The notes beneath the pieces were generated by a model. It was given only the letters and a program-made list of their open reading frames with translations. It searched no databases and was not told where the DNA came from. A program made the position numbers and the translations under genes. Shown here one piece after another: positions 28,773 to 39,491 of a stretch of DNA of 64,000 bases (positions within the stretch are counted from its first letter, which is position 1; the number at the start of each line of letters is the position of its first letter). The DNA comes from a virus. The stretch lies in IMG/VR virus record IMGVR_UViG_3300043436_003696, positions 26,099 to 90,098 of that record; one strand, written 5' to 3'.

Positions 28773-29122
28773 TTGTGGAGATGTGGGGAGTCGAACCCCA
28801 GTCCGAATAGTTGCTATAATACAACTTGATTACATGCTTAAATCTATTATTGCTAATTGATTAGTATTAGGCTGAACCGAAATTCAGCTCCACCAGTTAG
28901 TTTAAAGTTCTAACAAACTTTTGATTAAGCAGCTAAAGCTACTTTTTCAGTTTTAGCAAATAAAGCTACAATGTTATTTGTAGTTGTTTCAGCAAAATTC
29001 CTAGAATTTTCTGAAATTGTATTGTTGTTTGCGTTTGTTTTTGATACTAATTTAGATGTAATGTATCTACCATCGCATGATTGTATTAAGGCTTAACACT
29101 CTCGTCAATTCCCGTCATCCCC
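28773..29122 (-). ncRNA. ssrA: tmRNA (transfer-messenger RNA), phage-encoded
   Basis: 350 bases on the minus strand. The 5' end GGGGATG pairs with CATCTCC at the 3' end (one G-U), forming a tRNA acceptor stem; next to it is a canonical T arm, TGGGG-TTCGACT-CCCCA. ACGGGAATTGACGAG follows the 5' end as in the D-like region. An internal frame ends VALAA then TAA (28925-28927), matching the ALAA proteolysis signal of tmRNA tags. The 3' CCA is not encoded (ACA follows). Role: rescue of stalled ribosomes and tagging of unfinished proteins, together with host SmpB. The tag frame is long: if it starts at GCA it is about 35 residues (ANNNTISENS to VALAA). The resume codon cannot be fixed by eye. Confidence 0.9.
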
Positions 29123-37979: not shown

Positions 37980-38048
37980 GATGTATTATTTAAAATATGT
38001 GTTATAATAGATAGGAGTAATATTTCTACTACTCCTATACATGTTTGT

Positions 38049-38153
38049 AGTCAGGACAGGATTTGAACCTGTATGGGATTCTGAGCCAATTACTTCCTCT
38101 CGATGTTCCTCCCAGTTTATTTCAACTTGCGTCTATCATTCCGCCACCTGACT
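38049..38153 (-). tRNA. tRNA-like gene, class II type, anticodon unresolved
   Basis: 105 bases. Acceptor stem AGTCAGG/CCTGACT (7 bp, perfect), T arm ACAGG-TTCAAAT-CCTGT (perfect), and a Leu/Ser-like D region (TGGCGGAATGATAGACGC). The centre is about 20 bases longer than in a normal tRNA-Leu and gives no clean 5-bp anticodon stem with a 7-base loop; TGGGA/TCCCA may form a long variable arm. CCA is not encoded; ACAAAC follows, as it does after the tmRNA. Either an odd tRNA-Leu or tRNA-Ser, or a decayed copy. Confidence 0.6.
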
Positions 38154-38303: not shown

Positions 38304-38377
38304 TCCCTCTGCACTCAGTTGTAATAGCTCTTTTTGGGATTTAAGACTAACACTATTACAACTGCTCATTCTTGGGA
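38304..38377. repeat. structured repeat element, copy 1
   Basis: TCCCTCTGCACT, then CAGTTGTAATAG (38316-38327) which pairs perfectly over 12 bp with CTATTACAACTG (38353-38364), then CTCATTCTTGGGA. TCCC and GGGA close an outer stem. Blocks ATTAAGAAG-CTACATG and GAGTTGTGGTGCATTA follow at 38498-38540. All recur in copy 2. No RNA family is recognised. Confidence 0.7.
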
Positions 38378-38547
38378 GCTGATTAATTGTGGTTTATTTA
38401 TTTCTGAATCATTTACACACATTTAGCAAGACCATTGCTTATTAATCAGGTAGTTTCACATCTTAATAAATACCTTATTCAGGTGTCCGGGAATTTAAAC
38501 TATTAAGAAGTCTTTATATCTACATGAGTTGTGGTGCATTAGTAATA

Positions 38548-38585
38548 TAATCAGTCAACCCAGCATTACCTGTAATTGACTGATT
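38548..38585. repeat. perfect 10-bp hairpin
   Basis: AATCAGTCAA and TTGACTGATT with a 17-base loop. It lies just after the stop of the 38595 gene and may end its transcript, but there is no clear T run leftward. Confidence 0.5.
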
Positions 38586-38594
38586 AAAGTGTTG

Positions 38595-38960
38595 TTATAC
38601 TTTTGCTTCTTTTAATTTATAACCAAATCTTTCAATTAATTTATCTCTTTCAGATATTTTAATTGGTTTATCGTTATATTTATAAGCATATTCAAGGTCA
38701 TAGATATTTTTAGTTAATAATAAATCATCACTCGAATAATTAGCTTTAGTATTTGATATTTCAATTACTTCATTTACTGAACAATATTTAGGTAAATCTC
38801 TAACTAAATTTTGTATAGTTTGTTTATGTTGTAATGCTCTATTAGATAATTCTTTAAGAAGTCTAAAATTACCATCAGCTATTTCACTAAGTATTGAACT
38901 TTGTGTTGATTCTAATTGAGATAAACTATCTTTAAGTTTGTCAATGAAATATTGTTTCAT
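38595..38960 (-). CDS. helical protein between structured repeats, unknown
   Basis: 121 residues, starts MKQYFIDKLKDSLSQLEST and is mostly helical; ends with KLIERFGYKLKEAKV. It lies between the two structured repeat copies and so may depend on them for expression. No family. Confidence 0.6.
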   Translation of the reverse strand: MKQYFIDKLKDSLSQLESTQSSILSEIADGNFRLLKELSNRALQHKQTIQNLVRDLPKYCSVNEVIEISNTKANYSSDDLLLTKNIYDLEYAYKYNDKPIKISERDKLIERFGYKLKEAKV

Positions 38961-39173
38961 AATTTTGTTATTTAATCAGTTAATAATTTATTTGTGTTTT
39001 ACACCTAAAACTTTGATAATAAACAATATGTTGTGGTTATTTTATTGTAACAAAACTTATTTCAACGCTTTTATACCTTGAGTATATGCGAACCTGAAAC
39101 TTGCTTCATTCTGTTCAATTAATCAAAGAAACTGGTGTCCTCAACATCTTGGAATGTTATTGAGTTTTTTATC

Positions 39174-39315
39174 TCCCTCTGCACTCAGTTGTAATAGGTT
39201 TAAACTAACAATTACTAACGCATAGGAATACCTACTAGGATATTAAGAAGATTTACTTGCTAACTTCTCAACTCTACATGTTTCATTGTTCTATTACAAC
39301 TGCTCACCCTTGGGA
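39174..39315. repeat. structured repeat element, copy 2
   Basis: TCCCTCTGCACT and CAGTTGTAATAG (39186-39197), then 93 bases containing ATTAAGAAG and CTACATG, then CTATTACAACTG (39291-39302) and CTCACCCTTGGGA. The arms are identical to copy 1. The right arm covers the last codons and stop of the 39294 gene, so the stop codon lies in the stem. Confidence 0.7.
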
Positions 39316-39491
39316 AGTGAGTTGTGGTGCATTAATAAAGCAGATTCATAAAGCATTTCAATCTCTTTTCCTGTTAATGTTTCCCATCTACGAACACTTC
39401 CAACTAATTCTGTACTAGTGTCGCAAATTTGAGTTTTACGCAAAGATGAAAGTCCGTTCCACCATTGCATTGCTTCTTTTCTTTTAGTCAT
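39294..39491 (-). CDS. small protein, unknown
   Basis: 65 residues, MTKRKEAMQWWNGLSSL, then GSVRRWETLTGKEIEML. Its last codons (MHHNSLPKGEQL) and stop form one arm of structured repeat copy 2. Function unknown; translation would disturb the stem, which suggests coupling between the two. Confidence 0.5.
   Translation of the reverse strand: MTKRKEAMQWWNGLSSLRKTQICDTSTELVGSVRRWETLTGKEIEMLYESALLMHHNSLPKGEQL

What the first reader, a model, noticed from the sequence alone, without database searches (positions are those of the whole stretch)
38304..39330. Two copies of an undescribed structured repeat, with blocks in different order
A 12-bp perfect stem CAGTTGTAATAG/CTATTACAACTG, flanked by TCCCTCTGCACT and CTCA(TT/CC)CTTGGGA, occurs at 38304 and 39174, with loops of 25 and 93 bases. 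Two more shared blocks (ATTAAGAAG-CTACATG and GAGTTGTGGTGCATTA) lie outside the stem in copy 1 but inside or next to it in copy 2. In copy 2 the arm covers a gene's stop codon. The stems are conserved while loops are not, which points to selection on structure. They could be paired regulatory RNAs, a replication structure or a mobile hairpin.
Basis: seen in the sequence. Interest (0 to 1): 0.65.

Follow-up and report, generated by a model that had tools for sequence, protein, structure and literature searches.

The report
Twister-like phage ribozymes with swappable arms
The two repeats are copies of an uncatalogued structured RNA that closely resembles the self-cutting "twister" ribozyme, is common in crAss-like and other environmental phages, and carries side arms whose contents are exchanged between phages like cassettes.

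Summary
The repeats are real and are two members (long form 38304-38541, short form 39174-39334) of a widespread phage RNA family read on the minus strand, the direction of the neighbouring genes. Helices P2, P4, P5 and a variable P1 are supported by covariation, and wobble pairs fix the RNA strand (P5 core: 32 G-U against 2 A-C). The core 5' UAAUGC..CA-P4(UUCCCAAGG)-P5-A-GUGCAGAGGG 3' is that of a twister ribozyme opened at P1: 23 of 26 core positions equal Rfam's Twister-P5 consensus, including the U^A cleavage step and both catalytic bases. It is not a clean family member: the conserved GC of pseudoknot T2 is missing and no Rfam model matches. I call it a twister variant that probably cuts phage transcripts between genes; cleavage is untested. 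New are an always-present P5 arm, a long form with three extra helices inside P4, and hairpin cassettes swapped between phages and between arms. The "different block order" is simply long form against short form.

The parts
39174..39334 (-). Short-form element (copy 2), RNA on the minus strand
   Evidence: CM R1 match 39169-39340, 97.8 bits (it is one of the model's own sequences); fold z = -3.55
39332..39334 (-). L1 5' strand UAA; predicted cleavage between U39334 and A39333
   Evidence: A conserved 44/44 and U 39/44 in A1; cleavage inferred from twister
39327..39331 (-). P2 5' strand UGCAC, pairs with 39180-39184
   Evidence: covariation in 3 of 5 pairs
39303..39321 (-). P4 hairpin CUCAC-UUCCCAAGG-GUGAG; loop 39308-39316 = L4
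   Evidence: all 5 P4 pairs change on both sides in relatives; L4 matches twister L4
39186..39302 (-). P5 arm: 12-bp stem 39291-39302/39186-39197 with a variable 93-nt cassette loop 39198-39290
   Evidence: cassette 89% like that of L110
39180..39184 (-). P2 3' strand GUGCA
39175..39179 (-). L1 3' strand GAGGG: first G (39179) = predicted general base; GGG = T1 partner of CCC in L4
   Evidence: conserved 41-43/44; identical to Rfam Twister-P5
39335..39340 (-). Possible P1 5' strand (6 bp with 39167-39172, two-base offset)
   Evidence: P1 is significant across the family; in this copy only with an offset
38304..38541 (-). Long-form element (copy 1), RNA on the minus strand
   Evidence: same architecture in about 45 long-form relatives; partial R1 match 59.6 bits
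38539..38541 (-). L1 5' strand UAA; predicted cleavage between U38541 and A38540
   Evidence: by homology with copy 2
38534..38538 (-). P2 5' strand UGCAC, pairs with 38310-38314
38524..38528 (-). P4 5' strand CUCAU, pairs with 38365-38369
38450..38523 (-). Long-form insertion, part 1: P6 GUAG/CUAC (38520-38523/38450-38453), conserved internal loop AUAUAAAGAC/UGUGAAA, P8 UCUUAAUA/UAUUAAGA (38501-38508/38461-38468) with a variable loop
   Evidence: P6 A-U or G-C in 37 of 38 readable members
38379..38449 (-). Long-form insertion, part 2: P7 CUGAUUAA/UUAAUCAG (38442-38449/38379-38386) with a variable loop
   Evidence: P7 8 or more of 10 pairs standard in 38 of 42 members
38370..38377 (-). L4 of copy 1 (UCCCAAGA)
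38316..38364 (-). P5 arm of copy 1 (12 bp, 25-nt loop)
38305..38314 (-). P2 3' strand GUGCA (38310-38314) and L1 3' strand GAGGG (38305-38309)

Best explanation
Both repeats belong to a large phage family of twister-type self-cleaving ribozymes in P1-type order, transcribed from the minus strand. P1, L1 (UAA/GAGGG) and P2 stack; the P4 loop (UUCCCAAGG) folds back so that its CCC pairs with the GGG of L1 (T1), and the RNA cuts itself between U and A of UAA. Cleavage would cut polycistronic phage transcripts in intergenic leaders and leave the downstream mRNA with a folded 5'-OH start. The arms P5, P7 and P8 are tolerant sites whose hairpin cassettes are exchanged by recombination between conserved arm bases. 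Shown: structure, RNA strand, core identity with twister, intergenic same-strand placement, cassette exchange. Inferred: catalysis, transcript processing, recombination as the mechanism.
For: P2, P4 and P5 covary: 20 of 31 pairs with two-sided changes, no shuffle of 500 as good, sliding the partners destroys it. 135 of 136 hits found without any P5 constraint have the predicted 3' half, with compensated P5 arms. Strand: 32 G-U against 2 A-C in RNA sense. P1 pairs only in the register next to UAA and GAGGG (z 2.5, 5.7, 4.7, 2.8). 23 of 26 core positions are identical to Rfam's Twister-P5 consensus after rotation, including the conserved A and less conserved U at the cleavage site (44/44, 39/44) and the catalytic G (42/44), as described for twister in PMC5408937 and PMC9901934. 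Same strand as genes, next ATG most often 20-60 nt downstream. Cassette swap at one locus (L159/L170) and gain or loss of a whole unit (L096/L168).
Against: No Rfam twister model scores any member. The T2 dinucleotide GC is absent; only C15-G33 could remain. T1 changes are too few for a covariation test and the search patterns fix one side. P1 is weak in the two window copies. A few members replace L1 by a helix. No expression or cleavage data.
Confidence: 0.72

Rival explanations
1. A twister-derived scaffold with little or no cleavage, used as a stable mRNA leader, protein-binding platform or RNA decoy; the exchangeable cassettes are the working part.
For: T2 is reduced; some members (L021, L009, L019, L030, L040) can pair the GGG of L1 with a 5' UCC strand instead, and some lack UAA or the L4 CCC while keeping P4 and P5. 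The P5 stem is conserved in sequence beyond pairing.
Against: Catalytic A 44/44 and G 42/44 stay conserved in otherwise divergent members, which a dead scaffold would not need.
Confidence: 0.17
2. An unrelated three-way-junction RNA with a loop-strand pseudoknot that resembles twister by convergence.
For: Rfam twister models do not match; T2 not met.
Against: 23 of 26 identical core positions (binomial P about 1.6e-11 at one quarter per site), same topology, even the same P2 core UGC/GCA as Twister-P5.
Confidence: 0.06
3. A mobile DNA hairpin (REP/IS200-type or similar non-autonomous element) acting as DNA.
For: Multiple copies with unrelated flanks; precise extra unit in L096 against L168.
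Against: Strong RNA-strand wobble asymmetry; fixed orientation with genes; no shared neighbouring protein found.
Confidence: 0.03

Closest known systems
Twister ribozyme (Rfam RF02684 Twister-P5, RF03160 twister-P1, RF03154 twister-P3)
   Same: L1 UAA/GAGGG, P2 with UGC/GCA, L4 UCCCAAG, T1 complementarity, variable P1, U-A cleavage dinucleotide, catalytic A and G positions
   Different: T2 GC absent (at most one pair C-G); P4 loop bulge shorter; P5 arm always present (1% of annotated twisters per PMC6154101) and carries long cassettes; insertion of three helices inside P4 in the long form; no Rfam score
Twister-sister ribozyme
   Same: Vague similarity of the P4 loop shared with twister (PMC5408937)
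   Different: Per PMC5408937 it cleaves on the opposite strand of the internal loop and shows no pseudoknot; the present family keeps the twister L1
Large phage noncoding RNAs such as GOLLD and ROOL (own knowledge)
   Same: Structured phage RNAs, often near tRNA genes
   Different: No Rfam match to any of them; much smaller, with a ribozyme-like core

Membership tests
Twister ribozyme | Essential stems P1, P2, P4 in twister topology | tested here: met
   P2, P4 covary; P1 significant in the expected register only
Twister ribozyme | L1: conserved A after the cleavage site, less conserved U before it, GAGGG opposite | tested here: met
   A 44/44, U 39/44, GAGGG 41-43/44 per base
Twister ribozyme | L4 with U.A trans pair and CCCA for T1 | tested here: met
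   U27, C28-C30, A31, A32, G33 at 42-44/44
Twister ribozyme | Pseudoknot T1 (three Watson-Crick pairs) | tested here: inconclusive
   95.5% of cells complementary; compensated changes seen only in L154, L139 and L167; search patterns bias the test
Twister ribozyme | Pseudoknot T2 with conserved GC in L2 and two bulged bases in L4 | tested here: not met
   L2 is CA and L4 GG/GA; only C15-G33 is possible, and C14 covaries with P2
Twister ribozyme | Score above the Rfam twister cut-offs | tested here: not met
   No match to RF03160, RF02684, RF03154 even at E up to 10; the same library does find real Twister-P5 in L240 and L243
Twister ribozyme | Self-cleavage at U-A | not testable with these tools
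   Needs in vitro transcription
Mobile DNA hairpin element | Structure acts as DNA, with no strand preference of wobble pairs | tested here: not met
   32 G-U against 2 A-C on the minus strand

The most novel reading that the evidence does not exclude
Phages keep a twister-type ribozyme as a standard socket for interchangeable RNA modules: hairpins with functions of their own (some tRNA-like) are plugged into arms P5, P7 or P8, traded between unrelated phages, and released or displayed by self-cleavage, a cassette system made of RNA.
Probability: 0.25. Interest if true: 0.85.

Novelty: new variant of a known kind. Interest (0 to 1): 0.63.

Why it matters
It adds a numerous ribozyme group, missed by standard RNA annotation, to crAss-like and other environmental phages. 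What bacterial and phage twister ribozymes are for is an open question; here there are well over a hundred natural members in clear gene contexts, with same-locus comparisons showing arm replacement and gain or loss of whole units, so a transcript-processing role becomes directly testable. The altered T2 and the insertion inside P4 also test which parts of the twister fold are really needed.

Tried and rejected
Rfam at gathering and permissive thresholds gave no family for the elements. No copies in annotated phages or plasmids; one MAG contig in genome contigs (L177). A search for Twister-P5 in 299 genomes rang nowhere, an uninformative negative. Group I/II intron: dropped, elements are intergenic with unrelated flanks and show no intron match. 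tRNA intron: dropped, only L161 has a tRNA-like loop. Shared neighbouring protein: downstream proteins fall into many small clusters. T-arm-like hairpins in cassettes: 6 loops against 1.2 expected, suggestive only. Gut crAss-like regions that share a block next to copy 2 do not contain this element. The idea that cleavage before the stop codon of ORF 39294-39491 feeds the phage tmRNA was set aside: only a few of 146 elements have an upstream ORF reading in. Literature searches for twister together with crAss-like phages found nothing in the library.

Full report
OBSERVATION. Both 12-bp inverted repeats and the shared blocks are present at the stated places. Flanks and loops of these hits are unrelated, while the arms and the blocks next to them are conserved. 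A third scan with a block found only in copy 1 (TCAGGTRGTTTCACATCT) gave 49 stretches, nearly all with the whole copy 1 architecture. So there are two forms. The short form (copy 2) ends right after the CTCAC...GTGAG hairpin; the long form (copy 1) has a conserved insertion inside that hairpin.

STRAND AND STRUCTURE. Plus-strand helices show A:C 'mismatches' far more often than G:T (P5 core 17 against 2, P4 6 against 0). Read on the minus strand these are G-U wobbles: 32 G-U against 2 A-C in a wider set. The functional molecule is therefore RNA from the minus strand, also the direction of the neighbouring genes. An alignment of 44 short forms (A1) supports P2, P4 and P5: over the whole tested structure 89.7% of cells pair, 20 of 31 pairs have two-sided changes, none of 500 shuffles reaches any measure, and sliding the partners destroys it. 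The flanks pair as a short variable helix P1 only in the register next to UAA and GAGGG (z = 2.5, 5.7, 4.7, 2.8; runs of 4 or more bp in 31% against 6.6% in shuffles). Among hits retrieved with no P5 constraint, 135 of 136 carry the predicted 3' half, and P5 arms change with compensation, e.g. CAGTATGT/GCATACTG and CAGATGTA/TACATCTG. In the long form, P6 is A-U or G-C in 37 of 38 readable members.

WHAT IT IS. RNA sense, short form: 5' P1-UAA-UGCAC-CA(CAA/UAA/UU)-CUCAC-UUCCCAAGG-GUGAG-[CAGUUGUA..cassette..UACAACUG]-A-GUGCA-GAGGG-P1' 3'. A twister ribozyme has stems P1, P2, P4, an internal loop L1 with the U-A cleavage step (A highly conserved, U less so), and a P4 loop that forms pseudoknot T1 with L1 and T2 with L2 (PMC5408937, PMC6154101); the catalytic bases are the A after the cut and a G 39 nt from it in the rice twister (PMC9901934). 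A printed construct reads acactgccaatgccggtcccaagcccggataaaagtggaggg (PMC12236469). Rfam's Twister-P5 consensus, printed when real twisters were found in L240 and L243, is cGCAGAGgG-[P1]-UAAUGCgGCAagacCGGUCcCAAGCCCGg. Rotated to P1 order, 23 of 26 core positions (GCAGAGGG, UAAUGC..CA, UCCCAAG) are identical to the consensus here. Conservation at the key bases in A1: A 44/44, first G of GAGGG 42/44, U 39/44, L4 bases 42-44/44. The resemblance was first recalled from memory and then tested against these sources.

WHERE IT DIFFERS. The T2 dinucleotide GC is absent; only C15-G33 could remain, and U26-R34 seems to replace the invariant G-C of the twister P4 loop. No Rfam twister model matches, even for a 91-base stretch around a minimal member. 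By the membership rule I do not file it as an Rfam twister; I call it a twister-type variant that most likely works like one. P5 is always present, against 1% of annotated twisters (PMC6154101). The long form adds three helices inside P4. T1 is complementary in 95.5% of cells, but changes are rare (compensated in L154, L139, L167) and the search patterns bias this test.

DISTRIBUTION AND CONTEXT. All 30 whole records searched hold the element, one to four copies on one strand, often clustered; opposite-strand rows are the palindromic P5 arm. The window phage is a distant relative of crAss-like phages (major capsid protein 27-29% identical). No annotated phage or plasmid holds it, and one bacterial MAG contig does (L177). 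In the 12 loci inspected, elements lie between genes in the direction of the surrounding gene runs. The next ATG lies most often 20-60 nt downstream of GAGGG (36 of 120), and downstream proteins share no family. In the window the two predicted cuts would release an RNA of 793 nt that carries the 121-aa ORF 38595-38960 behind a folded leader.

CASSETTES. P5 loops (median 70 nt) and the two long-form loops are mostly unique, but about 40 pairs are alike, many more than 94% identical in elements whose flanks show no similarity over up to 2 kb (e.g. L038/L141, L013/L150, L001/L101). Three pairs match a P5 loop to a P7 loop (best L113/L167, 89% over 65 nt) and one matches a P7 loop to a P8 loop (L035/L159), so cassettes also change position. 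L159 and L170 are the same locus (98% and 86% identical sides) with completely different P5 cassettes; L096 has a whole extra element between GGTGCATTA and AATAGTAGAG where L168 has none. One loop (L161) is read by ARAGORN as a tRNA with an insertion.

MECHANISM AND LIMITS. Most likely these RNAs cut themselves at U^A and so separate phage messages in intergenic leaders; recombination at the conserved arm bases would explain the exchange of loops. Structure, strand, core identity and exchange are shown; cleavage, processing and recombination are inferred. The main rival is a scaffold that has lost cleavage: T2 is reduced, and a few members (L021, L009) replace or block L1.

Noticed in passing
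window 38985-39171 (minus strand): A second conserved noncoding block (AAAAAACTCAATAAC.TTCCAAGA..TTGAGG.CACCAGTTTCTT ... AAAGTTTTAGGTGTAAAA) lies between copy 2 and the next gene and is shared with gut crAss-like phages (cr6_1, cr115_1 and others) in unannotated gaps of about 1 kb. It may be another structured RNA.
   Followed up: partly
window 38048-38153 (minus strand): A class-II-like tRNA found by Rfam (36 bits) but not by ARAGORN, with no clear anticodon stem.
   Followed up: no
window 28773-29122 (minus strand): Phage-encoded tmRNA with tag AKTEKVALAA.
   Followed up: no
window 39294-39491 (minus strand): A 65-aa ORF reads into copy 2 and stops inside P5, so the predicted cleavage would remove its stop codon.
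   Followed up: partly
L161 2183-2569 (RNA sense): The P8 loop of a long-form element in a 345-kb phage record holds a tRNA-like sequence with a 53-nt insertion.
   Followed up: partly
L089, L096, L164, L168, next to elements: A separate small hairpin GUAGAGAUAUAAAGCGAAGUGAAACUCUAC repeats the internal-loop motif AUAUAAAG/GUGAAA of long-form P6 (seen).
   Followed up: no
L240 5786-5851; L243 367-429 and 874-934: Canonical Twister-P5 ribozymes in viral contigs (Rfam, 49-57 bits).
   Followed up: no
L021, L009, L019, L030, L040: Variants in which the GGG of L1 can pair with a 5' UCC(C) strand, some with no UAA or no L4 CCC: possibly locked or inactive forms.
   Followed up: no
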